From: Paracoccaceae bacterium
GTDB taxonomy: Bacteria > Pseudomonadota > Alphaproteobacteria > Rhodobacterales > Rhodobacteraceae
NCBI GenBank assembly: GCA_029881635.1
Contig: JAOUMG010000010.1
Location: forward strand, 1-13,792
Length of the DNA: 13,792 bases
Direction: 5' to 3'
The notes under the pieces are model-generated. The model was given only the letters and a program-made list of their open reading frames with translations, searched no databases and was not told the origin of the DNA. Position 1 is the first letter of the stretch, and every line of letters begins with the position of its first letter. A program made the translations under genes and the position numbers. Shown here one piece after another: positions 2-13,194 of the stretch.

Positions 2-736
2 GTGGAGACGCATTTTACGCTGGCCAGCTATACCCGTTTTTTCGGTGAAAGCATCTTTTGGATGCCGTTCTTCCGGACATTGGGCTTCGCCACGGTTCTG
101 ACATTTGTCACCTTGGTTCTCACATTTCCAATTGCGTATTTTCTTGCCCGTCATGTCAGCCGCAAGAACCGCCTGCTTCTTTTGTTGCTGCTTTTGATAC
201 CCTTCTGGGTGGGTGAAATTGTCCGCACCTATGCGATCATGATCTTGCTGGGCAACAACGGTGCAGTGAACATTGTGCTGAAAACGCTCGGCCTGATCGA
301 TCGCCCAATTCCGTTCATGTACACCGGGTTTTCGCTTAGCGTCGGTATAATCTATCTCACGGCGCTCTACATGCTGCTGCCCCTGTATTCTGCTCTGGAA
401 AAGCTGCCTGCAAGCTATACGGAGGCAGCGGCGGATCTCGGGGCAGGGGCCTGGACGAGGTTTCGCAGAATTACTCTGCCCTTGTCGCTTGAGGGCATAT
501 CCTCGGGGTGTACGCTGGTCTTTCTGATCTCTACCGGTTTTTACGCGACGCCCGTTTTGTTGGGCGGACCATCGACTACAGTTTTCGCCGAAACCATCGC
601 TGGCTTTTTCCATGTGGCCGGTGATCAGTGGCCGACCGGTGCGGCCTTTGCGACCATAATGTTTCTGGCCGCGCTTCTGATAACAGGGGCATTCCAGAAA
701 CTGATGAAGGCGCTCCGCAAAGGAGACACCAAATGA
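2..736 (+). CDS. Spermidine/putrescine-type ABC transporter permease, PotB-like (5' end cut by window)
   Basis: Inner-membrane permease of a polyamine-type ABC importer (binding-protein-dependent permease family, PotB/PotH branch). The visible 244 residues hold about five hydrophobic helices. The family EAA loop is at residues 141-162 (EAAADLGAG, then ITLP), which contacts the ATPase subunit. The reading frame is open to the window edge. The text begins at the FTLASYTRFF segment that normally follows the first transmembrane helix, so roughly the first 40-60 residues, including TM1, probably lie upstream. The GTG at position 2 is therefore unlikely to be the true start. The stop overlaps the ATG of the next permease (ATGA at 733-736), indicating translational coupling. 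A PotD/PotF-type binding protein would be expected upstream, outside the window. The transported solute could be a polyamine or another small cationic or amide compound; the sequence does not settle it. Confidence 0.9.
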   Translation: METHFTLASYTRFFGESIFWMPFFRTLGFATVLTFVTLVLTFPIAYFLARHVSRKNRLLLLLLLLIPFWVGEIVRTYAIMILLGNNGAVNIVLKTLGLIDRPIPFMYTGFSLSVGIIYLTALYMLLPLYSALEKLPASYTEAAADLGAGAWTRFRRITLPLSLEGISSGCTLVFLISTGFYATPVLLGGPSTTVFAETIAGFFHVAGDQWPTGAAFATIMFLAALLITGAFQKLMKALRKGDTK

Positions 737-1521
737 CGCGTGGTTCGCGAATTTTGCTGAGCTGCATTTACTGGGCCTTTGTCGTCTATGTGTTTGTGCC
801 TCTTTTCCTGATGATCCTCATGGGGTTCAAAGATTCAAAATTCATCGGCTTTCCGATCAAGTCATGGACATTGAACTGGTATCTGGACGTTTTCAAAAGC
901 TCCGAAATGCTGTCGGTCATGGGCTATTCTGTGGCTATCGCCGTCCTGTCCACGATCATTTCGGTGTTTATCGGCACCTGGATCGCAGTGCTGCTTGAGG
1001 GTCGCAAGTTCTTTGGGCGGGCAGCCATTTTTGGCCTGACCATCCTGCCTGCGCTTGTGCCGGGTATAATCTCGGCCATCTCGTTCCGCATCTATGCCCG
1101 TCTGCTTGGGATCGAGCCGGGGATGTTCGCGATTATCTGGGCGCATGCGGTACACAATGTACCCTTTGTTGCACTGGTCGTCATGGCGCGACTGTCCACT
1201 TTGCCGAAAAGCCAGAGCGAGGCTGCAAGGGATCTGGGCGCCGATCCCCTTGTTGCGTTCTGGCGCATCACGCTTCCCTATCTGGCACCTGCGATCATGG
1301 GGGCAAGTATCTTTTGCTTGCTGCTTAGTTTTGACGATTTTGTGCGGTCCTTTTTCCTGGGCAGCTACGACCCGACATTGCCGGTCCTGATCTTCGCAAA
1401 ACTGCGTTCGGGAATGTCTCCGGAAATCAATGCCATCGCTACGGTCGCTTTGGTTTTGACGGCCATTTTGGGTGTATGGGCAGAACGCTACACGCGAAAA
1501 TCAAGCAAGGATTCCCAATGA
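733..1521 (+). CDS. Spermidine/putrescine-type ABC transporter permease, PotC-like
   Basis: Second inner-membrane permease of the same importer (PotC/PotI branch), 262 aa, the usual size. There is a hydrophobic TM1 at about residues 8-30, several further helices, and the EAA coupling loop at 163-184 (EAARDLGAD, then WRITLP). The segment LLSFDDFVRSFFLG at about 197-210 matches the conserved 'SFDDFV' stretch of PotC proteins. The ATG at 733 was chosen because it overlaps the upstream stop as ATGA and has an AGGAG Shine-Dalgarno at about 721-725. An open frame further upstream is only a shadow of potB. The stop overlaps the start of the ATPase gene (ATGA at 1518-1521). It works with the upstream permease as a heterodimeric membrane channel energised by the downstream ATPase. 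Confidence 0.93.
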   Translation: MTRGSRILLSCIYWAFVVYVFVPLFLMILMGFKDSKFIGFPIKSWTLNWYLDVFKSSEMLSVMGYSVAIAVLSTIISVFIGTWIAVLLEGRKFFGRAAIFGLTILPALVPGIISAISFRIYARLLGIEPGMFAIIWAHAVHNVPFVALVVMARLSTLPKSQSEAARDLGADPLVAFWRITLPYLAPAIMGASIFCLLLSFDDFVRSFFLGSYDPTLPVLIFAKLRSGMSPEINAIATVALVLTAILGVWAERYTRKSSKDSQ

Positions 1522-2606
1522 TGAACGCCATAGCCCCCGTTGCGCGTATTGAGGGCATATCCAAACGCTTCGGCAAGACGGTTGCAATTGAGCATCTCGA
1601 ACTGGATATCGCACCCGGAGAATTCGTGACCTTCCTCGGCCCGTCAGGCTGCGGCAAATCCACGACGCTGCGTATACTTGGGGGATTCGAAACCCCGGAT
1701 CAGGGCCGCATTATCCTGAATGGGCAGGATGTAACCGCGCTTCCGCCGAACCGGCGCAACGTCAATATGGTTTTCCAGGACTATGCGCTGTTTCCGCATA
1801 TGACCGTCCAGCAGAACATGCGGTTCGGGCTGGAACTCAAAGGGCTGGATCATGCAGGGATCAAGCGGCGGATCGATGAGATAACGGCATTCCTCGAACT
1901 TTCGGACTATGTCGACCGGTATCCGGGGCAGTTGTCCGGTGGCCAGCGGCAGCGCGTGGCCTTGGCGCGTGCCCTTGCGCCTGATCCTGCGTTGCTCTTG
2001 CTCGACGAACCATTGGGCGCGCTCGACGCAAAGTTGCGCGGACAGGTCCAGCAGGAGCTGAAATCGATCCAGCGGCGTTCCGAGAAAACCTTTTTCTTCG
2101 TGACCCATGATCAGGAAGAAGCCCTGACCATGTCCGACAGGATTGTGGTTATGAACAATGGCCGTGTCGAACAGGACGGCACCCCGGAGGAGCTTTATTT
2201 TCACCCGACAAGCCGATTTGTCGCTGAGTTCATAGGTGAGACCAACCTGCTTGATGGCAAGGTCAAGGGTGTCGAAGGCAAGGATGTCATCATGGATTGG
2301 CACGGGAATACCTTGCGCGGTCACGCACCTGGCGGCGCGCCCCGGTCAGGCGATATGGTTACGGCTTCGGTCCGGCTGGAAAAGCTGGTTCTTCACCCAA
2401 AACAGCCTGCCGAGGTAAATGCTGTTCTGGGCCGCGTGGTGGGCAAAACCTTCCTTGGAAGCCGCATGGCGGTCGATCTTCGCGTCGAAGACGCCAATGG
2501 TGCGATGCTCAAGGCATATGTGGACAACGAAACCGGTCGGGCAATCGGTGAGGAGCCGGTCTGGTTGGGGTGGGATTCTGAAAGCCTGTCAGTCTTGCGT
2601 GCCTGA
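1518..2606 (+). CDS. Spermidine/putrescine-type ABC transporter ATP-binding protein, PotA-like
   Basis: Cytoplasmic ATPase driving the importer, 362 aa. In order there are Walker A GPSGCGKST at 41-49, the Q-loop in VFQDYALFPHMT near 85-95, the ABC signature LSGGQ at 139-143, Walker B LLLLDEP at 159-165, the D-loop GALD, and the switch histidine at 197 (FVTHDQEEA). A TOBE-type regulatory domain covers roughly residues 250-360. All catalytic motifs are intact. Two ATG codons lie in tandem (1518 and 1521). The first overlaps the potC-like stop and lies 7 nt after AAGG at 1507-1510, so it is preferred. The alternative removes one methionine only. It is the last gene of the plus-strand operon and converges on the formamidase gene 78 nt away. 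The PotA/UgpC/CysA subfamily is clear; the exact substrate is not. Confidence 0.94.
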   Translation: MMNAIAPVARIEGISKRFGKTVAIEHLELDIAPGEFVTFLGPSGCGKSTTLRILGGFETPDQGRIILNGQDVTALPPNRRNVNMVFQDYALFPHMTVQQNMRFGLELKGLDHAGIKRRIDEITAFLELSDYVDRYPGQLSGGQRQRVALARALAPDPALLLLDEPLGALDAKLRGQVQQELKSIQRRSEKTFFFVTHDQEEALTMSDRIVVMNNGRVEQDGTPEELYFHPTSRFVAEFIGETNLLDGKVKGVEGKDVIMDWHGNTLRGHAPGGAPRSGDMVTASVRLEKLVLHPKQPAEVNAVLGRVVGKTFLGSRMAVDLRVEDANGAMLKAYVDNETGRAIGEEPVWLGWDSESLSVLRA

Positions 2607-2624: not shown

Positions 2625-2685
2625 GGTCGCCAAAAAGCTTTTGTTCTGGTCAGATCGCTGATCTGCGCCCAGATGCCTAGCGACC
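2625..2685. terminator. Possible bidirectional terminator region between convergent operons
   Basis: The 78-nt space between two convergent genes contains a perfect 6-3-6 hairpin (CAGATC GCT GATCTG, 2651-2665). A longer-range inverted pair GGTCGC/GCGACC (2625-2630 and 2680-2685) surrounds it. There is also a self-complementary AAAAGCTTTT next to TTTTGTTCT near 2632-2647. None of these forms a classical GC stem followed directly by a T-tract. The call rests mainly on position, since two operons must end here. Confidence 0.3.
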
Positions 2686-3623
2686 TAGCCAAGTACGGAT
2701 TTGGGAAAGTAAAAGCTTACGACCCAATTGGGCATGTCGACGATCTCCGATATTCTCAGGTCCCCGGACACGCTGCAAAGCATATAGGCTTCAACCGCTG
2801 ACATCTGGGTGGTCGCACAGATCCAGTCGATCATTTGCCTGACGGCGTCGCGCGCCGATTGCATCAGATCCGGTCCGATCCCGGTCGTGACCCTATATCC
2901 TTGCTGATCGATATGGCGCGTCACCGGGCCGTTGGTTTCCAAACGTGGAAACCGGAAATCTGCACCTTTGATCAGATCGACTCTGATCTCAACATCCATC
3001 GGGCTTTCGATTGCTGTGCCGCAGATTTCACCGTCCCCTTGTGCTGCATGGGTATCGCCCAATGACAAAAGACCGCCTGCCACTTCGACAGGCAGATAAA
3101 GTGTCGTGCCCTTGCAATTGTCGCGGATGTCGAGATTGCCGCCCACGCGGCGGGGGGGCACCACGCTGTGATGCCCCGCTTCGGCCAATGCAAGGCCGAT
3201 TGTCCCCACAAAAGGCTTTAGTGCGACGTGACCAAAGGGGGCAAAAGCCGCCGGGTGCTTCAGACCTGTATCATAGTTCCAAATGTGCAGCGCCGGATCG
3301 GCAAAATCATCGGCCAACAGTCCAAATCCGGGGATGTTGGCTGTCCAGCCCCAACCAGAGGCGTGAAAGTCCAAAAAGGTGATCGCAACCGCATCCCCGG
3401 GTTCAGCGCCGTCCACATGAACAGGACCGGTTACCGGGTTCACATTATCGAAACTGAGGGCTTTGAGATCTTTCAGCGTGGATTTTGCGTCAAGCTGCCC
3501 ACCCGAGGCATCGATGGTTTCAATGGCAATGGTTTGTCCGGGGGTCACACTTAGAACGGGTTCGATCGAATTGTCCCAGCCAAGGTGATGGTTGTGTTTG
3601 TGGATGGTGTGATTGCAACCCAT
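2685..3623 (-). CDS. Acetamidase/formamidase family amidohydrolase
   Basis: Cytoplasmic hydrolase that cleaves short-chain amides such as formamide or acetamide to carboxylate plus ammonia (FmdA_AmdA family), 312 aa, normal length. Family landmarks are NPVTGPVHVDGAEPGD at about 62-77, VPPRRVGGNLDIRDN at 155-169, LPVEVAGGLLSLGDTHAAQG around 177-196 followed by DGEICGTAIE, and the C-terminal SVSGDLRISEIVD near 284-296. The acidic and histidine residues around GGNLD and GDTHAAQGDGE fit the family's metal site. The start lies 1 nt after the livM-like stop, with AAGGGGGA as a good Shine-Dalgarno 5-6 nt upstream. It is the last gene of the minus-strand operon, behind a Liv-type amide/amino-acid importer. 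This recalls the Methylophilus fmd arrangement of formamidase with an FmdDEF importer. The true substrate could be another primary amide released by the upstream enzymes. Confidence 0.93.
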   Translation of the reverse strand: MGCNHTIHKHNHHLGWDNSIEPVLSVTPGQTIAIETIDASGGQLDAKSTLKDLKALSFDNVNPVTGPVHVDGAEPGDAVAITFLDFHASGWGWTANIPGFGLLADDFADPALHIWNYDTGLKHPAAFAPFGHVALKPFVGTIGLALAEAGHHSVVPPRRVGGNLDIRDNCKGTTLYLPVEVAGGLLSLGDTHAAQGDGEICGTAIESPMDVEIRVDLIKGADFRFPRLETNGPVTRHIDQQGYRVTTGIGPDLMQSARDAVRQMIDWICATTQMSAVEAYMLCSVSGDLRISEIVDMPNWVVSFYFPKSVLG

Positions 3624-3624
3624 G

Positions 3625-4665
3625 TTAATCCCCCTTTGTTTTGCGCCGAAACAGGTCCTCGATTTCGCGATTGCCCATTATGCCATTGGGTAGAAATGCC
3701 ATGACAGCAACGATAACGACACCCAGCAACAATCCCGACAGACCCAACATCTGCGGCAGTTTCAAACCTGCCAGAGTCGGCCCTGTTTCGAGCCAGCGTA
3801 CCACCTCTAGCCCGATTGAGATCAAGAGTGTTCCGAACACTGCGCCAGACACGCTGCGCAGCCCACCCAAAATCAGCATCGCAACGGTCAGAAAGACGAA
3901 ATTGAAGTAGAAGGGCCGTGCTGAAATAGTGCCCAGGAAGAATGCATAAGCAATCCCAGCTGTGGCAAAGAACATCGTCCCAAGCACCCAGGCGATCAGT
4001 CGGACACGGTAGACGTCAACACCCATAGATCGTGCGCCGGCCTCATCATCAGCGCAGGCACGTAGCTGCAGGCCAATGGCGCTTTCGCGGAAAAGCCGGG
4101 CGGCAAAAATCGCGATGATTACCAGCCCGGTAATGTGCGGCAGGCCGAAAACTTTTGGAATGCCAAACAGTGCCTGATTGCCTTTGAAGATGTCCGTGCG
4201 GTGCAGGAATATTGAATGCACGATAACCAGGATCGCGATACTGACAATGGTCACGCCGACACCGCTAAGACGTACGACAATCAGCCCGGTCAAAAGACCC
4301 AGTACCCCGGTTATCGCCAAGGCGATCATCGCCGAAACGATGGGAGACAGGTCAAAGGCGTTCAGCCCCCATGGCGCATCCGGCAGCGAAATAAGCTTCA
4401 TGGCTGCCGGAGTGACGCAGATCGCGGCAGCATAGGCCGCGATGCCCATGAAGGCCGCGTGTGAAAACCCGGTGATATTTGCGTTGCCTGTGAAGACCTG
4501 CAGACCCACAACCACCAGCAAGTTGACAAAAGTGGCATAGAGAATACGCGCCTGATAGCTTTCCCCCCAAAGCGCGTAGGTGCCGACAATTGCCAAAACG
4601 ATGACGCTGAGCAATGCGGCCCCAACCAAGCCCTTGCGCTGATCCTGGTTCAACGGGAGCCGCAT
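3625..4665 (-). CDS. Branched-chain amino acid/amide-type ABC transporter permease, LivM-like
   Basis: Inner-membrane permease of the HAAT (hydrophobic amino acid and amide) importer family, 346 aa. It is very hydrophobic with eight or more predicted helices. The conserved LivM segment GNANITGFSHAAFMGIAAYA lies near residues 60-79. The ATPase-contact region (ACADDEAGARSMGVDV) is near 200-220, followed by FLTVAMLILGGLRSVSGAVFG near 258-280. It ends in the charged tail FLPNGIMGNREIEDLFRRK typical of LivM. The ATG at 4665 shares its first base with the livH-like stop (TGATG), and a GGGAGA Shine-Dalgarno lies inside the end of the preceding gene. It pairs with the LivH-like permease. Homologues in this family carry amino acids, urea or short amides; the sequence alone does not choose between them. 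Confidence 0.93.
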   Translation of the reverse strand: MRLPLNQDQRKGLVGAALLSVIVLAIVGTYALWGESYQARILYATFVNLLVVVGLQVFTGNANITGFSHAAFMGIAAYAAAICVTPAAMKLISLPDAPWGLNAFDLSPIVSAMIALAITGVLGLLTGLIVVRLSGVGVTIVSIAILVIVHSIFLHRTDIFKGNQALFGIPKVFGLPHITGLVIIAIFAARLFRESAIGLQLRACADDEAGARSMGVDVYRVRLIAWVLGTMFFATAGIAYAFFLGTISARPFYFNFVFLTVAMLILGGLRSVSGAVFGTLLISIGLEVVRWLETGPTLAGLKLPQMLGLSGLLLGVVIVAVMAFLPNGIMGNREIEDLFRRKTKGD

Positions 4666-5561
4666 CAGATCTTGTCTCCCTTTTCGCGGGCAGGCGACAA
4701 GATGCCATCCGGCCGCCAGATCAGGACAAGCGCCACCATCGTGAAGACGGCCGCCTGCGCCATCCCCCCCGCACTTTGTGGCAGCAAGACCAGCACAACG
4801 ACCTCCGCAATGCCCAGCAGGAAGCCACCAAGGACCGCACCGGGCAGGCTGCCAAAACCACCGATAACGCAGGCAACAAAGGCAACGAGAACCGGATCAA
4901 AACCCATATGCGGCTGAACAGAACCACGCCGCGCCATGATGAAGATGCAAGCCAGCCCCGCCAGCAGGCCGGATATGGCAAAGGCCCCCGCGATCACCCG
5001 GTTTGCACGGATCCCACATAAGCGCACCATCTCAAAATCAAGCGACGCCGCACGCATCGCCATGCCCAGCGTCGTCTTGCGCAAAAAGGTCATCAATATG
5101 CCGATCGCCACAAAGGTTGCGAGCGTTTCATAGATTTGCAGCGATGAAACCCGGACGGAGCCGAAAGTTAATGTTTTGTCGAGAAAAATGAATTGCGTCG
5201 CGGCCATTGGCCGTGGCGACCCGAGCAGCAAGAACAGGTTTTGCAATATGATGCTGACGCCAAATGCGGTCAGCAACCCCGTTGTCAGATCCGCGCCGCG
5301 CACGGTGCGAAAGGCCACACGTTCAAGGGCGACCGAGGCTACCACGCAGGCGATTAGGACACCAGCCATCAGTATCCAGGGGCTATTGGTCAGCAAGGTG
5401 GATACGATAACCATCGAATAGCCGCCAAAGGCTACGACTTCGCCATGGGCAAAGTTCACAAGCCCCATGATCGAAAAGACAATCGCCAAGCCGAGGGCGA
5501 TCAGGGCATACTCAGCCCCGAAGCTCAGGGCGTTCAGCGTTTGTTGAATTGCATAATCCAT
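4665..5561 (-). CDS. Branched-chain amino acid/amide-type ABC transporter permease, LivH-like
   Basis: Inner-membrane permease partner of the LivM-like protein, 298 aa, standard length. Family marks are GLAIVFSIMGLVNFAHGEVVAFGGY near residues 24-48, the coupling region AMRAASLDFEMVRLCGI around 170-190, and VAFVACVIGGFGSLPGAVLGG near 230-250. The usual C-terminal LIWRPDGIL closes the protein. The start codon overlaps the stop of the livF-like gene by one base (TGATG at 5559-5563), so the two genes are probably translationally coupled. The next gene follows with the same type of overlap. No truncation or unusual residue is evident. Confidence 0.93.
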   Translation of the reverse strand: MDYAIQQTLNALSFGAEYALIALGLAIVFSIMGLVNFAHGEVVAFGGYSMVIVSTLLTNSPWILMAGVLIACVVASVALERVAFRTVRGADLTTGLLTAFGVSIILQNLFLLLGSPRPMAATQFIFLDKTLTFGSVRVSSLQIYETLATFVAIGILMTFLRKTTLGMAMRAASLDFEMVRLCGIRANRVIAGAFAISGLLAGLACIFIMARRGSVQPHMGFDPVLVAFVACVIGGFGSLPGAVLGGFLLGIAEVVVLVLLPQSAGGMAQAAVFTMVALVLIWRPDGILSPAREKGDKI

Positions 5562-6268
5562 CAGACATGTACCCCGGTAAGCTCGCCCATCAAATCGCTG
5601 CCGTCACCGAAATTGGCCGCCGCACCGTGGCTTGAAATCAGGCCGTTGTTCAGAACATAGACATAGTCCGACACGCGAATGGCGGCGCTGGCGTTTTGTT
5701 CGACCAGTAATATCGTTGTGCCACGGGCCTTGAGATCCCTTACAATCTCAAAGATCTTGGCGACGATCATCGGGGCGAGGCCCAGTGACGGTTCATCCAG
5801 CAGCAAGATGCGCGGCTTTGATAAAAGCGCACGCGCGATGGCCAACATCTGCTGTTCACCCCCTGACAATGTGCCAGCCGGCTGGGCGTGTCTTTCGCCC
5901 AGGACCGGGAAATGCGTGAACCAATCTTCAATCTCGCGGTTCAGTTGTGCTTTGTCAGGCTGCAGCGCACCGCCCATAATGAGGTTGTCGCGGACAGAGA
6001 GGTTCGCGAAAACCCGCCGACCTTCGGGCGAGATGGCGATGCCGCGCCTGCATCTGTCTTCGACGGGAAGGCGGCTGATATCTTCGCCGCCAAGCCGGAT
6101 TGTGCCCGTTGCGCGCACCGTGCCGGTGATTGCTGAAAGGGTTGATGTCTTGCCAGCCCCGTTGGGGCCCAAAAGGGTAACGCATTGCCCTTCGGCGACA
6201 GAGATATCAATGCCGTGGACCGCTTCGATGGGCCCATGGAATGCCTTGAGAGAGCTGGTCTGGAGCAT
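5561..6268 (-). CDS. Branched-chain amino acid/amide-type ABC transporter ATP-binding protein, LivF-like
   Basis: Cytoplasmic ATPase of the Liv-type importer, 235 aa. Walker A is GPNGAGKTS at 34-42, the signature LSGGE at 134-138, and Walker B RILLLDEP at 153-160. The switch position reads LLVEQNA, with Gln in place of the usual His. That replacement, and PEGRRVF at the Q-loop, are normal hallmarks of LivF. It forms the ATPase pair with the LivG-like protein. Unusually, the two ATPase genes are not adjacent: livG lies upstream of the binding-protein gene and livF downstream. A strong hairpin separates livK from livF, so expression of livF and the genes behind it probably depends on read-through. 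A weak GGGA Shine-Dalgarno lies just upstream of the start. Confidence 0.93.
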   Translation of the reverse strand: MLQTSSLKAFHGPIEAVHGIDISVAEGQCVTLLGPNGAGKTSTLSAITGTVRATGTIRLGGEDISRLPVEDRCRRGIAISPEGRRVFANLSVRDNLIMGGALQPDKAQLNREIEDWFTHFPVLGERHAQPAGTLSGGEQQMLAIARALLSKPRILLLDEPSLGLAPMIVAKIFEIVRDLKARGTTILLVEQNASAAIRVSDYVYVLNNGLISSHGAAANFGDGSDLMGELTGVHV

Positions 6269-6285
6269 GCTGGTCCCGGATTAGG

Positions 6286-6320
6286 AAAATGCCTTTCCGG
6301 AGGAGTCCCCCGGAAAGGCA
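6286..6320 (-). terminator. Intercistronic hairpin with short T-tract between livK-like and livF-like genes
   Basis: A perfect 11-bp inverted repeat (TGCCTTTCCGG at 6290-6300 and CCGGAAAGGCA at 6310-6320, 9-nt loop) lies in the 59-nt gap. Read on the minus strand it is followed by TTTTCC, so it resembles a leaky Rho-independent terminator or an mRNA-stabilising stem at the 3' end of the binding-protein message. This would give the binding protein more transcript than the downstream permeases. The structure is directly visible; the function is inferred. Confidence 0.7.
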
Positions 6321-6327
6321 GGAGCCA

Positions 6328-7491
6328 TTATGGCCAGGAAGGAACGTTTGCGGGTATTTCCTGCGAAAGGATCACGCGCTTGCCGTCTTTGAACCCGATC
6401 ACCGGGATATCGCGCAAGGCATAGCTGTTGGTGTCCTTGAACGAGATCGCCTCAACCGACATCACCGGAATGCTGTCGGCAGCCCGGATCGCGTCACGGA
6501 TTGCGCTGGGTTCAGTGGACCCGGCTGCATTAATCCCGTGCTCGATAATCTTGATCATGTCGCCACCAAGTGCCGGGAAAAGCCCATTCACTTCGACGCC
6601 AATCTCGGCACAGGCCTTTTGAAACGCGTCGATGCGGCTATCAGGGACAGCCGGGGCCAGTGTGCCGAAAAAGACTTTGTCCAGCACGCTCGGGTCATCG
6701 CCTGCCAAAGCGTCAAGCGAGGGGTCATCAAACCCATCTGATCCGACAACCCAGGCATCAAGCCCGGCCGAGCGCATCTGGCGAACCAGGATGCCAATAT
6801 CGGGCATCGCCCAAGAGATATAAACCGCGTCAGGTGCCGGATCGAGCGCTTTGAGTTCGGCGATCTGCGGGCTCCAGTCGGTGGTACCGGAACTGTAGTT
6901 CAGTCTGGTCTGAAGCGTACCACCATTGGCCTCGATCACCTCTGCGAACCATTCGGGTGTGCGCGCCGACCATGACCCGCCTTCATCCGATGTGAAGATG
7001 ACCACGTTTTTTACACCCTGCGACAGCGCGTAGTTTGCCGCTGCGGCAGCCGTGTAGGGATCGGGCGCCACGTTGGTGAGGAAGTTGTCCACCACGCCGG
7101 TATGCATCTCGACTTGCGTACTTTGTGACTGGATCAGCGTCACCCCGTTGGCAGCGGCAATCTGGGCAACAGGGATCATCGTATCTGAAAAAGGGATCGT
7201 TGACATGGCCACGATGCCTTCGCTGACGAACCGTTCAGTCAACGAAATGGCAGTTTGGGTGTCAGAGCCTGTATCCTGGATCAACAGTTCAATTTCCTGG
7301 CCGTTGATGCCACCCGCAGAGTTGATCATCTTGGCCATACATTGCGCACCTGCAACTTCGTTATAGGGTGCGAAATCGCCTGTCAGGGGTACCGCCAGCC
7401 CGATCTTGATCGTCTCTGCAGCCTGAGCCGCCGATGCGGCAAGCCCGAGGCTCATCGCCGTTGTGATCAGCATAGGTTTAATTCTGTTCAT
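6328..7491 (-). CDS. Periplasmic substrate-binding protein of the Liv/amide-type importer, LivK/LivJ-like
   Basis: Periplasmic type-1 solute-binding protein (Peripla_BP_6-like), 387 aa from the chosen start. A clear Sec signal peptide (basic MNRIK, hydrophobic core, ASAAQA) should be cleaved after about residue 24. The mature protein opens with AETIKIGLAVPLTGDFA, the standard first strand, followed by a GINGQEIELLIQDTGSD segment. It captures the solute for the LivHM permeases. Three in-frame ATGs compete: 7509 (overlaps the livG stop), 7497 and 7491. The AGGAG at 7505-7501 sits about 8 nt before 7491 but only 2 nt before 7497 and downstream of 7509, so 7491 is preferred. The ligand cannot be read from sequence; amides, urea and amino acids are all carried by relatives. 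Confidence 0.92.
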   Translation of the reverse strand: MNRIKPMLITTAMSLGLAASAAQAAETIKIGLAVPLTGDFAPYNEVAGAQCMAKMINSAGGINGQEIELLIQDTGSDTQTAISLTERFVSEGIVAMSTIPFSDTMIPVAQIAAANGVTLIQSQSTQVEMHTGVVDNFLTNVAPDPYTAAAAANYALSQGVKNVVIFTSDEGGSWSARTPEWFAEVIEANGGTLQTRLNYSSGTTDWSPQIAELKALDPAPDAVYISWAMPDIGILVRQMRSAGLDAWVVGSDGFDDPSLDALAGDDPSVLDKVFFGTLAPAVPDSRIDAFQKACAEIGVEVNGLFPALGGDMIKIIEHGINAAGSTEPSAIRDAIRAADSIPVMSVEAISFKDTNSYALRDIPVIGFKDGKRVILSQEIPANVPSWP

Positions 7492-7505
7492 TTTCATCTC
7501 TCCTG

Positions 7506-8225
7506 TCATATGTTGTCGCCTTGTCCGAGATAGGCGCTGATAACCTCTTTGTTTGTGGTGACTTCCTGGGGCAGTCCAGAGGCTAGTAAGCTGCCCATAT
7601 TCATGACGGTCAGCCGTTCACATGCTGACATGATGAATTTCAAATCGTGATCAATCAGCAAGATGGCACAAGGGTGCCGGTTCCTGAGCCACGTGATATT
7701 GCGAAAAAGCGCGTCGGTTTCTTCAGGGTTCATCCCGGCGGCGGGTTCGTCAAGCATCAGCACCCTTGGCCTCAACGCCAAGGCGCGCACAATCTCCAAG
7801 CGCCGCATCTGTCCGTAGGGCAGGCTGTCGGGCGCTTCGCCAAGAACATCGCGCAAGCCAAACCGGTCAATCGCGTCTTCGACCAGTCCCGGGTCGGCGG
7901 TCGCCATCCCGCGAACCTGAAGCTCGGCCACCTCAATGTTGCGCCGGACGGTAAGGTTGCGAAACAGGCGAAGATTCTGAAAGGTGCGCGCCACACCTTT
8001 GCGAGCCCGCTTTTCGGCCGGCAAGTTGTCGATGCGTTCGCCTTCAACGGTGATCTCGCCGCTGGTAACGCTCAGCAATCCGGAGATCAGATTGATCATC
8101 GTCGTCTTGCCGGCGCCGTTTGGACCGATCAGGCCGTGGACCTCATTGGCCCCGACAGAAAAACTGACATCGTTCACGGCTTGTACGCCGCCAAAGTTCT
8201 TTGAAATGCCCCTGACTTGCAGCAT
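7506..8225 (-). CDS. Branched-chain amino acid/amide-type ABC transporter ATP-binding protein, LivG-like
   Basis: Cytoplasmic ATPase, 239 aa. It has Walker A GPNGAGKTT at 34-42, Q-loop TFQNLRLF near 81-88, a LivG-type signature LPYGQ at 135-139 followed by MRRLEIVRALA, Walker B RVLMLDEP at 154-161, and the switch histidine in LIDHDLKFI (His193). The C-terminal tail (EVISAYLGQG) is the typical LivG ending. The start lies 1 nt beyond the stop of the glutamine-synthetase-like gene, with AAGGAAG as Shine-Dalgarno inside that gene's end. The stop overlaps a possible upstream ATG of the binding-protein gene. It partners LivF, which is encoded beyond livK. The genetic fusion of importer and ligase into one transcript suggests that the imported solute, or a product of it, is the ligase substrate. 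Confidence 0.93.
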   Translation of the reverse strand: MLQVRGISKNFGGVQAVNDVSFSVGANEVHGLIGPNGAGKTTMINLISGLLSVTSGEITVEGERIDNLPAEKRARKGVARTFQNLRLFRNLTVRRNIEVAELQVRGMATADPGLVEDAIDRFGLRDVLGEAPDSLPYGQMRRLEIVRALALRPRVLMLDEPAAGMNPEETDALFRNITWLRNRHPCAILLIDHDLKFIMSACERLTVMNMGSLLASGLPQEVTTNKEVISAYLGQGDNI

Positions 8226-8226
8226 T

Positions 8227-9540
8227 TCAGTACACTTCCTTGTAGCGGCTGCACTTTTCCGGCCAGCCGAGGCCGGCTAGCTGCGCCATTTCCCCGCGCT
8301 TATGCGCAAGATACAGATCGACAAACTCATCACCGAACCATTGGCGAACGGCTTTGGATCCGCCGAGTTTTCCAAGCGCCTCGTCCAAGGTCTGCGGTAA
8401 GCGTTTGAAACCCTTTGCAGCCAGTTCCGATGCCGACAAAAGCGACAGATCCTCATTTACCGGTGCGGGTGGTTCTATCTGATCCTTGACCCCTTGGGTT
8501 CCGGCAAACAGCAATGCCGCAAATGCCAGATGCGGACTGGCGGCGGCATCAATCGCGCGCACTTCGAAATTATACTGTCGCGCGACAGCCTCTTCGTCTT
8601 GGGTCGAGACCGGGCAGATCCGGACCGCTGCCTCGCGGTCCCGGTAGCCCAGATTATTGAACGCCGCACTCCATCTATGCGGTGTCAGGCGCAGATAGCT
8701 GATTTCCGAAGGCGCAAGAATCGCCAGAATTTGATCGAGGTGATGCAGGATGCCCCCGATGAAATGCCGGGTCAGGCGGCTCATGCCATGTGGTGCCTTT
8801 GGGTCATAGGTAAGCGGCGCGCCATCATCATCGACAAAGCTGAAATGGATATGCACCCCGTTGCCGACACTGTCGGGATCAAGGATCGGCGAAAAACTGG
8901 GGGAGGCGCCATGGCGGCGGATCACGTCATCGGCCAATAGCCTCAGGATCGCTGCATTGTCCGGCGTCACAATGCCCAGCGTTGGTTTGATCGTGATCTC
9001 GTATTGCGACGGCCCGTATTCCTTCATGAATGTGTCGGGTTGACATGAAGTCTGGGCAAGAGATGCCAGGAAAGCACCGCTCCAGTTCCGTGCATCGCGA
9101 AATCCTTTCAGACCGAAACCGTCGCCTGGGCGTGGGGGCATGTCTTTGATCTGAAACTCATGCTCGAATGCCGACAGCAACCGCGCGCCGCTTGCCTGAT
9201 GCAGTTCCTCCAAACTCCGGCGCGCCAGAGATCGCGTACAAAAGGCCCATGGTTCGCCTTCCAGGCTGCGAATATCGCCCAGCGCGAAGTCGAAAACATC
9301 GTCGCCGTCTTTCAACGTGATGCGGGTGTCGGGGTCAGGGACCAGAGCCAGATCGCCGAAAGAACCAAAGGGGCTTTCGGATATCGTGTCAAAACAGGTT
9401 ATCTGAACATTGGTCGGTGTCCATCCAACACCGCGCTGCAACCGTTTCTCCCAATCCGCGGCGGGAAAGGATTTGCCGCGCAAGATACCGGCAATATCCG
9501 AGGTGCCAACGAAAACCAGCCTGTCTTCTGATGCGATCAC
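8227..9540 (-). CDS. Glutamine synthetase family protein (probable gamma-glutamyl-amine ligase)
   Basis: ATP-dependent ligase of the glutamine synthetase fold, 437 aa. Beta-grasp part is about 1-100 and catalytic barrel about 105-437. Metal/ATP residues align with EHE at 126-128, EYGPSQYE at 174-181, NGVHIHFS at 227-234, RLTPHRW at 284-290, YRDREAAVRI at 299-308 and FEVRAIDAAASPHLAFAA at 325-342. The fold's core acidic, histidine and arginine positions therefore look intact. The spot that carries the adenylylated Tyr in housekeeping GlnA (NLYxLPPEE) reads DLSLLSASE with Ser366, so GlnE control is unlikely. These features, and its place next to an importer and amidohydrolases, argue for a PuuA-like or other gamma-glutamylamine ligase rather than ammonia assimilation. 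GTG at 9540 overlaps the regulator stop (GTGA), with GAGG 5 nt upstream. The amine substrate is unknown. Confidence 0.88.
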   Translation of the reverse strand: MIASEDRLVFVGTSDIAGILRGKSFPAADWEKRLQRGVGWTPTNVQITCFDTISESPFGSFGDLALVPDPDTRITLKDGDDVFDFALGDIRSLEGEPWAFCTRSLARRSLEELHQASGARLLSAFEHEFQIKDMPPRPGDGFGLKGFRDARNWSGAFLASLAQTSCQPDTFMKEYGPSQYEITIKPTLGIVTPDNAAILRLLADDVIRRHGASPSFSPILDPDSVGNGVHIHFSFVDDDGAPLTYDPKAPHGMSRLTRHFIGGILHHLDQILAILAPSEISYLRLTPHRWSAAFNNLGYRDREAAVRICPVSTQDEEAVARQYNFEVRAIDAAASPHLAFAALLFAGTQGVKDQIEPPAPVNEDLSLLSASELAAKGFKRLPQTLDEALGKLGGSKAVRQWFGDEFVDLYLAHKRGEMAQLAGLGWPEKCSRYKEVY

Positions 9541-10394
9541 GACTGCCTCGCCAATTCGGACTCAGGTTCGGATCGCAGAGCATCCCATGCGGCAATCCGG
9601 GATTTTGTGGCGTTCCAATTGCGCTCGGCCAGAGGAACCAGCAGCGCCTCGATCATCGCAAAAGCCGGGGCGTAACTGTCCCACAGCGTTCCCGATTCAA
9701 TCGGAACAGCGACAAGCTCATTCGCCCCTTTTGCAGCAGGGCTGACCCACTGGTCTGTGATTACAATCGTTTGCGCCTTTCGGGCCCGCGCGGCGGCAGA
9801 AAGCCCGGCAAGGCTAGTCTGATAACGCCTGAAATCGACCAGCAGAAGAACATCGCGCGGTCGCATGCGCAAAAGGTATTCCGGCCAGGCTTCCGGATCG
9901 GAAGGAATGTGAAAAACGTCCTTGCGGATCTGGCGAAGGTGACGGGCAAAGAAATCGGCGATGCTGTCGCTCATCCTTCCCCCGATCAGATAGATCCGTC
10001 TTTTCGGATCGCTCAGCATGTCGCAAAGCCGTTCGAACTGGGCGGGCGATACGCGTTCCGTCAATTCTGCATTCAGCGCGCCGACCCGTTCAAGATAGGA
10101 GGCCAGCGGGGCAGATCGGTCGATGCTGCTGTCACGGCGTTCAAGATCAATGGGCGACTGACGACTTTCCTCCAGTTCCTGAACCAGCCTTTGCTGGAAT
10201 TCATGAAACCCGCCAAAACCAAGTTTGGTCACGAATCGTGAAATCGACGGCGCCGATATATGGGCGCGTTGTGAGAGTTCCTGAATGGGCTTGAGACCGG
10301 CAAAGGGATAGTCGGCCAAAAGAACTGACGCCAACTGCCTTTCGGCTGCCGTGAACGCATCGACCTTTTGTTCCATCAGCTGCCGGATATGCAC
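9537..10394 (-). CDS. RpiR/MurR-family transcriptional regulator (HTH + SIS domains)
   Basis: DNA-binding regulator, 285 aa. The N-terminal HTH_6 domain spans about 1-77; recognition region QELSQRAHISAPSISRFVTKLGF is around 38-60. A SIS domain spans about 130-255, with IYLIGGRMSDSIADFFARHL, DVLLLVDFRRY and VITDQ strands. SIS domains of this family usually bind phosphosugars or related effectors; the effector here is unknown. The long open frame starts at 10511 but would run through the promoter region. GTG at 10394 gives the family-typical start VHIRQLMEQKVDAFTAAERQLA and has a G-rich GGTGGGGGG just upstream. A second option is ATG at 10376. It is first in the operon, its stop overlaps the next start (GTGA), and a palindrome sits over its own promoter, so autoregulation and control of the divergent hydrolase genes are likely. 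Confidence 0.9.
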   Translation of the reverse strand: MHIRQLMEQKVDAFTAAERQLASVLLADYPFAGLKPIQELSQRAHISAPSISRFVTKLGFGGFHEFQQRLVQELEESRQSPIDLERRDSSIDRSAPLASYLERVGALNAELTERVSPAQFERLCDMLSDPKRRIYLIGGRMSDSIADFFARHLRQIRKDVFHIPSDPEAWPEYLLRMRPRDVLLLVDFRRYQTSLAGLSAAARARKAQTIVITDQWVSPAAKGANELVAVPIESGTLWDSYAPAFAMIEALLVPLAERNWNATKSRIAAWDALRSEPESELARQS

Positions 10395-10423
10395 GTGCCC
10401 CCCACCATGTAACCCATGCTTCG

Positions 10424-10453
10424 AGAATAGGATGTATGAAAAAAGATTGTCAA
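10424..10453 (-). promoter_or_regulatory. Sigma-70-type promoter of the minus-strand rpiR-GS-liv-formamidase operon
   Basis: Read on the minus strand there is a perfect -35 hexamer TTGACA (10453-10448), an 18-nt spacer, and a -10 hexamer TATTCT (10429-10424, four of six matches). The expected transcription start near 10417 gives a short leader of about 22 nt to the GTG at 10394. The palindrome at 10444-10456 overlaps the -35 box. Confidence 0.65.
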
Positions 10454-10456
10454 TCT
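10444..10456. promoter_or_regulatory. Candidate regulator operator: perfect 6-1-6 palindrome
   Basis: AGATTG T CAATCT is an exact inverted repeat in the divergent intergenic region. It covers the -35 of the minus-strand promoter and lies just upstream of the TATAAT box of the plus-strand promoter. One bound dimer could therefore affect both directions. The link to the neighbouring RpiR-type regulator is inferred from position. Confidence 0.5.
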
Positions 10457-10459
10457 GTA

Positions 10460-10465
10460 TATAAT
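10460..10465 (+). promoter_or_regulatory. -10 box of the divergent plus-strand promoter
   Basis: A perfect TATAAT lies between the palindrome and the plus-strand genes. The -35 position (about 10436-10442) holds only an A-rich ATGAAAA-like sequence, so the promoter may need activation. The predicted start of transcription, about 10472, is only a base or two before an ATG at 10474 and about 65 nt before the TTG at 10537. Confidence 0.45.
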
Positions 10466-10536
10466 CGGTCCAAATGATGAATAATTTGCGGACTCGCACA
10501 CGCTCTGGCATTCAGAGCAGGTCTACGGAGATCAGT

Positions 10537-11334
10537 TTGACAAACGCGCAAGCCGACACGGTTGGGGATATCTTGCTTACCAACGGTATTGACCCCGACC
10601 CAGTCCGTGTCACCAATCCGCATGCCACAGCGCCGCTTTTGCTTGTCTGCGATCATGCCGGGCGGGAAATCCCGGAAAAGCTTGGTGGCCTGGGTTTGTC
10701 ATCAACCGAACTTGGCCTTCATATCGCTTATGATATCGGTGCGGAAACGGTCGCAAACGGGTTGGCCGACCGCTTCGGCTGTACACTCATCGCCCAGCGC
10801 TACAGCCGGTTGGTAATTGATTGCAACCGTCCGCCAGGAACCGCCCAATCGATCCCCGAGATCAGCGATGGCGTCATGGTTCCGGGGAATGCCAATCTAC
10901 TGCCTGCGGATCGTGTGCTGCGCGAAAGGGCAATCTTCGCCCCGTTTGCCAGACAATGCGAGATGGAGATGCAGCGTTCAAATCATCGCTTCGCGTTCGC
11001 CATCCACAGCTTCACGCCCCGGTTGGGCGGAAATTCGCGACCTTGGGACATAGGGTTTCTCTATCGGCATCCCTGTAGCCAGGGCGACCGGCTGGTGGCT
11101 CTTTGTCAGGAATTGTGGCCTGATCTGAAAATAGGAAAGAACCAGCCCTACCAGATCGAAGATGCAACGGATTGGTTCATCCCGGTCTGCGCGGAAACCC
11201 GTGGAATCCCCCATTGCCTGATCGAAGTCAGAAATGACCACTTGCTGACAACGGCAGGGTGCGAGCTCTGGGTTGAGCGCCTTTACCGACTGCTATCGAC
11301 ATTTATGGAGCAAGCCAATGCAACTCACGCGTGA
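10537..11334 (+). CDS. N-formylglutamate amidohydrolase (FGase) family protein
   Basis: Predicted metal-dependent amidohydrolase of the FGase family (PF05013), 265 aa from the chosen start. Members hydrolyse N-formylglutamate to formate and glutamate, but many paralogues have unknown substrates. Visible motifs are LLVCDHAGREIP at 35-46, HIAYDIGA at 62-69, RYSRLVIDCNRP at 88-99, ISDGVMVPGN near 109-118, AIHSFTP at 155-161, RPWDIG at 168-173 and CLIEVRND at 227-234. The TTG start is supported by GGAG at 10527-10530, 6 nt upstream, and by a homologue-like N-terminus before DPDPVRVTNP. The alternative ATG at 10474 lacks a Shine-Dalgarno but would be almost leaderless. A Cys at 218 (PVCAETRG) sits where I recall relatives often having His. 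It opens the plus-strand operon and overlaps the cysteine hydrolase gene by 17 nt. No other histidine-utilisation genes are present, so a HutG role is not assumed. Confidence 0.82.
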   Translation: MTNAQADTVGDILLTNGIDPDPVRVTNPHATAPLLLVCDHAGREIPEKLGGLGLSSTELGLHIAYDIGAETVANGLADRFGCTLIAQRYSRLVIDCNRPPGTAQSIPEISDGVMVPGNANLLPADRVLRERAIFAPFARQCEMEMQRSNHRFAFAIHSFTPRLGGNSRPWDIGFLYRHPCSQGDRLVALCQELWPDLKIGKNQPYQIEDATDWFIPVCAETRGIPHCLIEVRNDHLLTTAGCELWVERLYRLLSTFMEQANATHA

Positions 11335-11974
11335 TGTCCCCTTGGTGCCTGCAAAATCGGCGCTTTTGTTCATTGACGTTCAGAATTTCAGTGCGCACCG
11401 CCAAGGCGCGGAGTTCAAGGATCTGCCAGAGGCCGAGTTTGCCGCGAAATACGGCTGGTATTTTGACCAGTTGGAAGCCCGGGTCATACCGAATATGCAG
11501 GCTATCCAGACCGCCTGCAGGCAGGCTGGCGTCGAGGTTATGTATACGACCATCGAAAGCCTGACACTGGATGGGCGCGACCGCTCGCTCGACTACAAGA
11601 TCACCGGGTTTCATGTTCCCAAGGGTTCGTGGGATGGGAAAGTCATTGATGAGATAGCACCGCAGGGCGACGAGATTGTTTTACCCAAGACGTCGTCCTC
11701 TGTATTCGTGTCGACCCATATTGATTACATCTTGCGCAATCTGGGTGTGACCCAGCTGGTGATCAGCGGCCTGATCACTGATCAATGCGTCGAAAGTGCC
11801 ATCCGCGACGCCTGCGATCTGGGGTATCTGGTCACCGAAGTGACTGACGCCTGCCTGACCTACAGCCAGGAACGCCACGATCACTCCTTACGGACGATCA
11901 AGGGATACTGTCGGCAGGTGACCACTGATGACCTCGTTCGGGAACTGAGCGCGGCGGGGAAGGCGCAAGGTTAG
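11318..11974 (+). CDS. Isochorismatase-family cysteine hydrolase (RutB/amidase-like)
   Basis: Cytoplasmic hydrolase of the isochorismatase-like fold, 218 aa. The catalytic triad of the amidase branch is present: Asp20 (LLFIDVQN), Lys124 (VLPKTSSSVF) and Cys157 (LITDQCVESAIRDA). With this triad, relatives hydrolyse ureidoacrylate, N-carbamoylsarcosine, biuret, nicotinamide or maleamate, releasing ammonia or carbamate. True isochorismatases lack the Cys, so an amide or ureide substrate is more likely. The ATG at 11318 is preceded by GGAG at 11307-11310 with 7-nt spacing and overlaps the end of the FGase-family gene. The longer open frame from 11273 is not supported. The overlap implies coupled expression of the two hydrolases, perhaps for successive steps. 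No terminator is obvious after the stop. Confidence 0.88.
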   Translation: MQLTRDVPLVPAKSALLFIDVQNFSAHRQGAEFKDLPEAEFAAKYGWYFDQLEARVIPNMQAIQTACRQAGVEVMYTTIESLTLDGRDRSLDYKITGFHVPKGSWDGKVIDEIAPQGDEIVLPKTSSSVFVSTHIDYILRNLGVTQLVISGLITDQCVESAIRDACDLGYLVTEVTDACLTYSQERHDHSLRTIKGYCRQVTTDDLVRELSAAGKAQG

Positions 11975-12219
11975 ATGGGTTGGAAAACTTGTACCGGTGA
12001 GGCCGACTGATTGATCTTCATATAATGCCAGCTCATGCAATGCGTTGCAGTGCTTCTGATCGATAGGTCCGCGCCCCTTTGGAAAACGGGATTGGCCCGG
12101 TGCAGCCCGCTTGCCCATATTTTCGCCAGATTATCTTGCTATCCCAGTTTGTCCTCAATTTTGAACAGGAAAGAGGGCGATGCGACACGGGAAGGGTTGG
12201 AAGAAGGCATTTCCATAGC

Positions 12220-13194
12220 ATGGCGAAGCGTTCTGCGGTAAAAATGGCCGAGCGGATAGGGCGGTTTTGGCGGGCATTGCCGGAATGGTTGCGCTGGGCA
12301 GCTTTGGCTGCGGCATTCATGGTTGGCTTTGAATTTCTTGGCCACCTGCCCATGACTGGCGCTGGCCTCATTCCTTCGGCGATCCTGCTTTCAATAGTGT
12401 CATTGACCGGCTTTGCTGTGGCGGCGCGGTCGTTTGCAGCCGAAACGTCGCCCGCAGATATTGTAGCCCAAAGCGAGATTGAGGATGACGGGCGGTTCCC
12501 TCGCCTGAAGCTCATGCTCTCGATCCTTTTGTTGGGCGTTACGGCGGTGGTTGTCTGGGCAATTGCGGAAACTGCCTCTCGGTTTTCTGATCTGCCCGTG
12601 CCCGATATTTTTCTGGCGATATCCACGTATCTCTTGGCGGGTTTGGCGGGGCCCTTCCTGCTTGGGCCGGTCTTATGGCTTGTGGGTCATATGCTGCCGC
12701 CTGTTGCGATAAACGTAGGATACCTATTGCGAATCGCAGGGCCAGTGGCAGACCCGATGACGGCGCGGGCCGCAATTGACAGTGTTCAGGTCTATGCCAA
12801 AGGTCTGGGGCGGGCCAAACGCATCAAAGACGCTGATCTGCGCCAATATCAACTGCGACCGGTCGGTCTGACAGAGTGGCTGACGCAGATGGGCCAGACC
12901 GTCACGGTCGAAAGACTGACGGCAGGCCGCGATCTGGTTCTGACCAGCCTGACGCGCGGTGGCGATTGGGAAAAGACTGCTTATGTCATGGTAGGAACCG
13001 ACAAGGAGGCTGTGTCAGATACCGTCATCTGCGAAAGCGCGGCGCGGCTCGCCTCGCCCTTCATGCGCGGTTTTGTTCGGCTCGTGGGCATTGCCAATCT
13101 GGCGCAGGGTGCCGCCGAGGTTGAAGCGATGCGGTTTTCACGTTTGACCGGTGTGCCGGTTTCAGTGACCGATTACCGCATGATCGAGGATTGA
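12220..13194 (+). CDS. Hypothetical membrane protein with four predicted helices and a C-terminal soluble domain
   Basis: I do not recognise this family. From ATG 12220 it has 324 residues. Hydrophobic segments lie at about 24-42, 48-70, 97-118 and 128-160, followed by a roughly 160-residue soluble region. The start is basic ([23 protein letters not shown]), and the soluble tail is probably cytoplasmic. The tail contains [31 protein letters not shown] and a conserved-looking end [22 protein letters not shown] lies about 12 nt before the chosen start, rather far; ATG 12244 (MAERIG) is the next option and an in-frame ATG at 12079 has no support. It is preceded by a 245-nt gap with no gene and no convincing promoter, then followed by zinc-finger and polA genes on the same strand. 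No catalytic motif was found. Confidence 0.75.

What the first reader, a model, noticed from the sequence alone, without database searches (positions are those of the whole stretch)
2685..11974. Unusual assembly: RpiR regulator, GS-like ligase, Liv/Fmd-type importer and three unrelated C-N hydrolases
Seen: eight packed minus-strand genes and a divergent hydrolase pair share one control region. Known: formamidases, FGases and triad-Cys isochorismatase-like enzymes all cleave C-N bonds, and GS-fold ligases can gamma-glutamylate amines. Inference: this is a dedicated pathway that imports a nitrogenous solute, activates it by glutamylation and strips it to ammonia and formate or carboxylate. No dehydrogenase or aminotransferase expected for the classical Puu putrescine route is present, and no hut gene besides the FGase paralogue, so neither standard pathway explains the set.
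Basis: partly seen in the sequence, partly recalled or inferred. Interest (0 to 1): 0.75.

Follow-up and report, generated by a model that had tools for sequence, protein, structure and literature searches.

The report
Predicted amino-acid-amide breakdown operon
A conserved set of bacterial genes probably imports amino acids whose acid end is blocked as an amide, tags them with glutamate, removes the block and takes the tag off again, which would give a natural job to two industrially used enzyme families whose role in nature is unclear.

Summary
In detail: eight tightly packed minus-strand genes (RpiR, GS-like ligase, LivGKFHM importer, FmdA) face a divergent, overlapping pair (FGase, isochorismatase-like) across one control region. 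It is not a chance assembly: the exact layout recurs in four named Rhizobiaceae/Rhodobacterales loci, and the core (ligase + FGase + Cys hydrolase + RpiR) recurs widely with interchangeable importers and accessory enzymes. Two leads point to the function. (1) GS-like ligase + FGase family is the gamma-glutamylation logic proposed for ethanolamine catabolism, where PF05013 is assigned (predicted) as gamma-glutamyl-glycine amidohydrolase; a parallel operon of that kind lies in many relatives. FGase here is therefore probably a deglutamylase, not a deformylase. (2) The accessory 'class III aminotransferase' of many sister loci is an alpha-amino-epsilon-caprolactam / amino-acid-amide racemase homologue, and FmdA belongs to a family said to include a broad L-amino-acid amidase. 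Best reading: glutamylate the amine of an alpha-amino acid amide, hydrolyse the carboxamide with the Cys hydrolase, remove glutamate with FGase. New variant of a known kind. Pathway logic is moderately supported; the substrate is inferred, and lactams or lactones remain possible. My searches of an open-licence library listed no paper describing the set. Nothing has been assayed.

The parts
2685..3623 (-). FmdA/AmdA-family amidase (312 aa); proposed amino-acid-amide amidase
   Evidence: PF03069, 194.7 bits; below the formamidase equivalog cut-off, 128.9 vs 500; linked relatives at 63-86% identity
3625..4665 (-). LivM-like permease
   Evidence: PF02653; 62-84% identical in the loci with this importer type
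4665..5561 (-). LivH-like permease
   Evidence: LivH 160.6 bits, UrtB 144.3 bits, both under cut-off
5561..6268 (-). LivF-like ATPase
   Evidence: LivF 219.7 bits, under cut-off
6328..7509 (-). LivK-like solute-binding protein
   Evidence: PF13458, 147.9 bits; urea and branched-chain models under cut-off
7506..8225 (-). LivG-like ATPase
   Evidence: LivG 233 bits, under cut-off
8227..9540 (-). GS-like ligase of the PA5508 type (437 aa); proposed gamma-glutamyl-amine ligase
   Evidence: PF00120 + PF16952; 4hpp 351 bits, next solved structure 120 bits; DGSS of 8oow (glutamine synthetase) aligns with TPTN here and VPAN in 4hpp
9537..10394 (-). MurR/RpiR-family regulator, HTH_6 + SIS (285 aa)
   Evidence: GTG start inferred
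10395..10536 (.). shared divergent control region
   Evidence: opposed promoter-like sites; TGTCAA in the window and 6 aligned relatives
10537..11334 (+). FGase-family (PF05013) hydrolase; proposed gamma-glutamyl-amino-acid amidohydrolase
   Evidence: model resembles 2odf strongly and zinc carboxypeptidases weakly; D/E63, H64, H181, R192, E254 (stop-to-stop frame numbering) in 87-88 of 88 sequences; TTG start inferred from GGAG at 10527
11318..11974 (+). isochorismatase-like cysteine hydrolase; proposed amidase for the glutamylated amide; D20, K124, C157
   Evidence: PF00857; Asp, Lys and Cys each in 108 of 108 aligned sequences, window included

Best explanation
A catabolic operon for alpha-amino acid amides (amino acids with a blocked carboxyl end), built on gamma-glutamylation. 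(1) The Liv-type ABC importer, controlled through RpiR, brings in a cationic amino acid amide. (2) The GS-like ligase joins L-glutamate to its amine with ATP. (3) The isochorismatase-like cysteine hydrolase converts the carboxamide of the gamma-glutamyl-aminoacyl amide to the acid, releasing ammonia. (4) The FGase-family hydrolase splits gamma-glutamyl-amino acid to glutamate and the amino acid. (5) FmdA is a parallel amidase acting directly on the free amide; in sister operons a racemase homologue equilibrates D and L amides. Shown here: gene content, linkage, family assignments, catalytic residues, and the racemase signature in sister loci. Inferred: the substrate, the order of steps and every reaction.
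For: The ligase groups with PA5508 (351 vs 120 bits) and lacks the DGSS motif; one held paper describes PA5508 as a gamma-glutamyl ligase preferring bulky amines over polyamines (PMC6478659, passages). GS-like ligase + PF05013 has a precedent in print: ethanolamine gamma-glutamylation with PF00120, PF00465, PF00171 and PF05013, the last assigned as gamma-glutamyl-glycine amidohydrolase (PMC9397018, passages). Such an operon (RpiR, FGase, TRAP, GS, ALDH, Fe-ADH) is complete in 7 of 8 fetched relatives, and its GS is found in 116 of 198 family genomes; the window's ligase shares only 25% with that GS, its FGase 37%. In the window the two oxidoreductases are absent and an amidase-type Cys hydrolase is present instead. 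The FGase model matches 2odf and, weakly (TM 0.4-0.5), zinc carboxypeptidases, YndL with a PGA peptide (5onj) and Csd4. The linked 'aminotransferase' of sister loci (L038) scores 541 bits to ACL racemase (2zuk), 510 to amino acid amide racemase (6gio) and 541-545 to the 5m46 series, deposited as class III aminotransferase but recalled by me as an ACL racemase; the next named class scores 273. The Asp of (S/A)DGG is in 23 of 23 of these rows and 0 of 19 other class III rows. In 387 class-wide genomes, 12 of 14 with this racemase also have the Cys hydrolase, which 33 of 387 have (p 1.5e-12, not corrected for kinship); 10 of 15 racemase loci have core genes in the fetched stretch of 10-20 kb (about 0.8 expected on rough assumptions). 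ACL racemases act on amino acid amides, and an L-amidase belongs to the formamidase family (PMC7431475, passages).
Against: No reaction or ligand is measured here, and the PF05013 step of the ethanolamine route is called predicted in the passages I saw. The window's own genome (89.6% complete) has no close ACL racemase (best 33-35%). In the 46 full-length named loci, 20 have neither FmdA, racemase nor the M20 hydrolase, and 12 lack the ligase or FGase. FmdA and racemase seldom co-occur (1 of 75 loci), but the avoidance is not significant (p 0.17 and 0.09). The racemase lies within 20 kb of the Cys hydrolase in 6 of 14 genomes; 5 of 15 racemase loci show no core gene, and one of the 10 positive ones shows only a 40%-identical FGase. 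Another paper says PA5508 uses spermidine and putrescine (PMC11335346, passage). Why an amide should be glutamylated before hydrolysis is not obvious. The window's FmdA was not compared with the L-amidase, whose paper is not held.
Confidence: 0.47

Rival explanations
1. Same glutamylate-hydrolyse-deglutamylate logic, but the natural substrate is a cyclic carboxyl-blocked amino acid: an alpha-amino lactam, homoserine lactone or homocysteine thiolactone. The Cys hydrolase or FmdA would open the ring.
For: The linked racemase homologues are nearest to alpha-amino-epsilon-caprolactam racemase; the A. obae enzyme also exchanges the alpha proton of homocysteine thiolactone (PMC11391342, passage).
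Against: No lactonase or lactamase family among the ten window proteins scanned with Pfam; that FmdA and isochorismatase-like families act on open amides is general knowledge, not tested here.
Confidence: 0.21
2. A Puu/Pau-like route for a primary monoamine or polyamine; oxidation steps are encoded elsewhere, and FGase or the Cys hydrolase replaces PuuD.
For: Relatives of the ligase act on putrescine or bulky amines (passages); some sister loci carry PotD-type or APC importers.
Against: No oxidase, dehydrogenase or PuuD family among the scanned window proteins; GGputSyn model 255 vs cut-off 650; PA5508 was not induced by polyamines (PMC6478659, passage); the linked PLP enzyme has the racemase signature.
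Confidence: 0.14
3. One reading: deformylation by FGase and formamide hydrolysis by FmdA, giving ammonia and formate.
For: Family names only.
Against: Both fail the equivalog cut-offs; a GS-like ligase has no place in a formamide route (inference); PF05013 beside a GS-like ligase is assigned in print as a deglutamylase.
Confidence: 0.08

Closest known systems
Ethanolamine gamma-glutamylation pathway (Chromohalobacter salexigens; Streptomyces coelicolor GlnA4)
   Same: GS-like ligase plus a PF05013 hydrolase assigned as gamma-glutamyl-glycine amidohydrolase; amine glutamylated first, deglutamylated last (passages)
   Different: Window lacks Fe-ADH and ALDH and has a Cys hydrolase and FmdA; ligase only 25% identical to the ligase of the parallel Rhodobacteraceae operon
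PA5508 (PauA7) of Pseudomonas aeruginosa
   Same: Nearest solved relative of the ligase (4hpp, 351 bits)
   Different: Natural substrate unsettled; the neighbourhood of PA5508 was not examined here
ACL / amino acid amide racemases (2zuk, 3dxv, 6gio)
   Same: Homologues with the signature Asp are encoded in many sister operons
   Different: Absent from the window; no close homologue in its incomplete genome
L-selective amidase of Ochrobactrum anthropi (Sonke 2005)
   Same: Said to be of the formamidase family, like FmdA here, and to hydrolyse amino acid amides (PMC7431475, passage)
   Different: Sequence not compared; operon setting not known to me
Puu putrescine pathway
   Same: ATP-dependent gamma-glutamylation of an amine and later removal of glutamate (recalled)
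   Different: No PuuB, PuuC, PuuD or PuuE family among the scanned window proteins

Membership tests
Gamma-glutamylation amine catabolism (general) | GS-like ligase without the ammonia-site motif | tested here: met
   TPTN in place of DGSS; 4hpp is the nearest solved relative. That the Asp of DGSS binds ammonia is recalled
Gamma-glutamylation amine catabolism (general) | dedicated hydrolase that removes glutamate | tested here: inconclusive
   PF05013 protein linked to the ligase and conserved; activity not tested
Ethanolamine gamma-glutamylation pathway | Fe-ADH and ALDH beside ligase and hydrolase | tested here: not met
   none among the ten window proteins scanned; present in 7 of 8 fetched parallel loci
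Puu putrescine pathway | PuuA-type ligase with oxidase, dehydrogenase, PuuD, PuuE | tested here: not met
   GGputSyn 255 vs cut-off 650; other families not found among the ten proteins scanned
Histidine utilisation (hutG) | N-formylglutamate deformylase equivalog | tested here: not met
   24 bits vs 278.75
Formamidase FmdA | NF045496 equivalog | tested here: not met
   128.9 bits vs 500; family PF03069 itself is met
RutB / biuret hydrolase / nicotinamidase | equivalog cut-offs | tested here: not met
   81.7 vs 377.95, 61.2 vs 370, 36.6 vs 174
Isochorismatase-like cysteine hydrolases | Asp-Lys-Cys triad | tested here: met
   D20, K124, C157; 108 of 108 aligned sequences. A looser pattern count before alignment gave 99, 107 and 108 of 108
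ACL / amino acid amide racemase (sister loci) | close sequence match and the Asp of (S/A)DGG with the PLP lysine | tested here: met
   541 bits to 2zuk; 23 of 23 rows over 150 bits vs 0 of 19 other class III rows, one row without letters left out. Rows were sorted by best BLAST hit. Role of this Asp is recalled
Urea / branched-chain amino acid importer | equivalog cut-offs of Urt or Liv subunits | tested here: not met
   all under cut-off; ligand unknown

The most novel reading that the evidence does not exclude
A widespread, modular, undescribed pathway for amino acid amides, with a fixed glutamylate-deamidate-deglutamylate core and swappable importers and entry enzymes, is the natural home of ACL/amino-acid-amide racemases and of formamidase-family L-amidases, and has spread on plasmids as far as enterobacteria.
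Probability: 0.4. Interest if true: 0.75.

Novelty: new variant of a known kind. Interest (0 to 1): 0.6.

Why it matters
ACL racemases and amino acid amidases have long been used to make amino acids, yet the passages I saw on them name no cellular pathway for them. The linkage found here gives a testable pathway and predicts functions for several proteins now annotated misleadingly (class III aminotransferase, N-formylglutamate amidohydrolase, acetamidase, glutamine synthetase). It also suggests that the gamma-glutamylation logic proposed for ethanolamine has a second version in which a hydrolase replaces two oxidoreductases.

Tried and rejected
Rejected: formamide/Hut reading (equivalog scores); Puu reading (no partner families among scanned window proteins); aminotransferase reading of the linked PLP enzyme; mutual exclusion of FmdA and racemase as a statistical claim (p 0.17 and 0.09). 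Led nowhere: literature searches for the gene set (47, 53 and 71 held no paper; two listed one unrelated-looking paper each, not opened; one listed 15 of 36, seen as a listing only); (12 of 5,545 listed, uninformative), which tie PA5506-PA5509 to over-expression in plasmid-carrying PAO1 and nothing more; the FmdA protein search (best 120 of 7,932 listed), which gave family names only; the 14 named control genomes, of which only Caulobacter vibrioides matched PF05013; an M20 (ArgE/DapE) accessory variant that I did not resolve (searches scanned the L043 protein only). The chance estimate assumes 4-Mb genomes and about 11 candidate genes per genome, which are my figures. Not done: the neighbourhoods of PA5508, of the A. 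obae and R. freirei racemases and of the O. anthropi amidase; a kinship-corrected co-occurrence test; a second structure prediction.
Full report
What is there. The window is the whole of contig C141 in a fragmented genome (682 contigs, 89.6% complete). Between RpiR and FGase lie two opposed promoter-like sites, and TGTCAA, which starts TTGACA on the minus strand, is shared by the window and the 6 relatives aligned with it.

Is it a real unit? Yes. In 198 genomes of the same family, the window's own included, 15 have the ligase at E <= 1e-80 and 15 have the Cys hydrolase at 67% identity or more; 13 are the same genomes (Fisher p 1.4e-16, not corrected for kinship). FGase as a family is common (175 of 198 at E <= 1e-15), but 14 of its 15 best-matching genomes are ones with the ligase; one ligase genome (G118) is not among them. 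Of these 80 loci 66 have the ligase, 60 FGase and 46 RpiR; of the 46 with at least 20 kb, 39, 38 and 33, and 31 have all four, while 12 lack the ligase or FGase. The window's order is repeated in a Rhizobiaceae MAG (L071), Oceanicola granulosus (L078), a Rhodobacteraceae MAG (L086) and an uncultured Rhizobiaceae-group bacterium (L121); L063 and L072 agree as far as their contigs reach; L128, L085, L110, L127, L101, L022 and L025 hold the same genes rearranged.

The unit is modular. The core stays while the importer varies: Liv of the window's type, Liv with a fused permease-ATPase, PotD-type, or an APC permease. Accessory enzymes vary too. In the 46 loci: FmdA alone 9, racemase homologue alone 8, M20 hydrolase alone 7, racemase plus M20 2, none of the three 20. 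FmdA and racemase are seldom together (one locus of 75, L028), but this is not significant.

What the ligase and FGase do. The ligase is nearest to PA5508 (4hpp; 351 bits, next 120), and the DGSS of the synthetase 8oow reads TPTN here and VPAN in PA5508. PA5508 is described as a gamma-glutamyl ligase that prefers bulky amines and is not induced by polyamines (PMC6478659, passages), though another paper gives spermidine and putrescine as its substrates (PMC11335346, passage). In many relatives a second, only distantly related operon joins RpiR, an FGase, a TRAP importer, another GS-like ligase, an aldehyde dehydrogenase and an Fe-alcohol dehydrogenase: the ligase is in 116 of 198 family genomes and the full set in 7 of 8 fetched loci. 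That is the family set listed for ethanolamine gamma-glutamylation, where PF05013 is assigned as gamma-glutamyl-glycine amidohydrolase (PMC9397018, passages); PMC6529630 shows the ligase GlnA4 and calls the later steps predicted (passages). Two distant ligases paired with FGase-family proteins argue that FGase removes glutamate. Its predicted fold (mean pLDDT 86) matches 2odf and, weakly, zinc carboxypeptidases, YndL with a PGA peptide, and Csd4.

What the substrate may be. The PLP enzyme annotated as a class III aminotransferase in relatives scores, for L038, 541 bits to ACL racemase 2zuk and 510 to an amino acid amide racemase, the next named class 273; for L040, 441 and 394. The Asp of (S/A)DGG is in 23 of 23 of these rows and 0 of 19 other class III rows. 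Starting from the racemase instead of the hydrolase: of 387 class-wide genomes 14 carry it, 12 of them with the Cys hydrolase, which 33 of the 387 have (p 1.5e-12); within 20 kb in 6 of 14. Of 15 racemase loci fetched (10-20 kb each), 10 have one or more core genes and 5 none; one of the 10 has only an FGase at 40%. On plasmids the racemase is in 85 records at E <= 1e-60, 44 of them Klebsiella; in the two enterobacterial regions read (L034, L045) it sits with ligase, RpiR, FGase, Cys hydrolase and an APC permease. ACL racemases act on amino acid amides, and an L-amidase whose title claims extremely broad specificity belongs to the formamidase family (PMC7431475, passages and a reference title). 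Racemase homologue and FmdA thus both point to alpha-amino acid amides. These are amines without a free carboxylate, which fits a bulky-amine ligase and importers for amides, polyamines or amino acids (inference).

Proposed mechanism. Import; gamma-glutamylation of the amine; hydrolysis of the carboxamide by the Cys hydrolase (Asp, Lys, Cys in 108 of 108 sequences); release of glutamate by FGase; FmdA or racemase to serve free amides. In the ethanolamine route two oxidoreductases turn the far end of the glutamylated amine into a carboxylate; here a hydrolase would do the same. The reactions and their order are inference.

Limits. Nothing is assayed. The window's genome lacks a close racemase. 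Twenty of 46 loci carry none of the three accessory enzymes, so the core may accept other amides, lactams or lactones; A. obae ACL racemase also works on homocysteine thiolactone (PMC11391342, passage). The original papers on PA5508 and on the L-amidase were not read. Statements that the set is undescribed rest in an open-licence library only.

Noticed in passing
window 2-2606 +: PotB (cut by the contig end), PotC and PotA-type importer genes, convergent with FmdA; below the polyamine equivalog cut-offs. Pot-type importers accompany the core in some sister loci, but those copies are only about 29-52% like these.
   Followed up: partly
window 12079-13194 +: Open frame of 371 aa downstream of the hydrolase pair with no Pfam match.
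   Followed up: partly
L047, L177-L179, L181-L184: Ethanolamine-type gamma-glutamylation operon (RpiR, FGase, TRAP, GS-like, ALDH, Fe-ADH); its ligase is in 116 of 198 family genomes at E <= 1e-100 and has no such match in the window's own genome.
   Followed up: yes
L034, L045 and other plasmid records: The core with racemase and APC permease on enterobacterial plasmids; the racemase search met 44 Klebsiella records.
   Followed up: partly
L077, L081, L083, L084, L091, L096, L100, L102, L106, L109, L113, L130: Cys-hydrolase loci with an M20 ArgE/DapE-type hydrolase, most with a different Liv importer beside it.
   Followed up: no
L024, L039, L056, L064, L115: Second isochorismatase-like gene in the same locus.
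   Followed up: no
L036, L188, L198, L199: FAD-dependent oxidoreductase near core genes or the racemase in some loci.
   Followed up: no
L035 4588-7617 and G000:C263 (L050): Long class III PLP proteins of about 1,000 aa (probably with an extra domain); one lies inside a core locus between ligase and RpiR.
   Followed up: no
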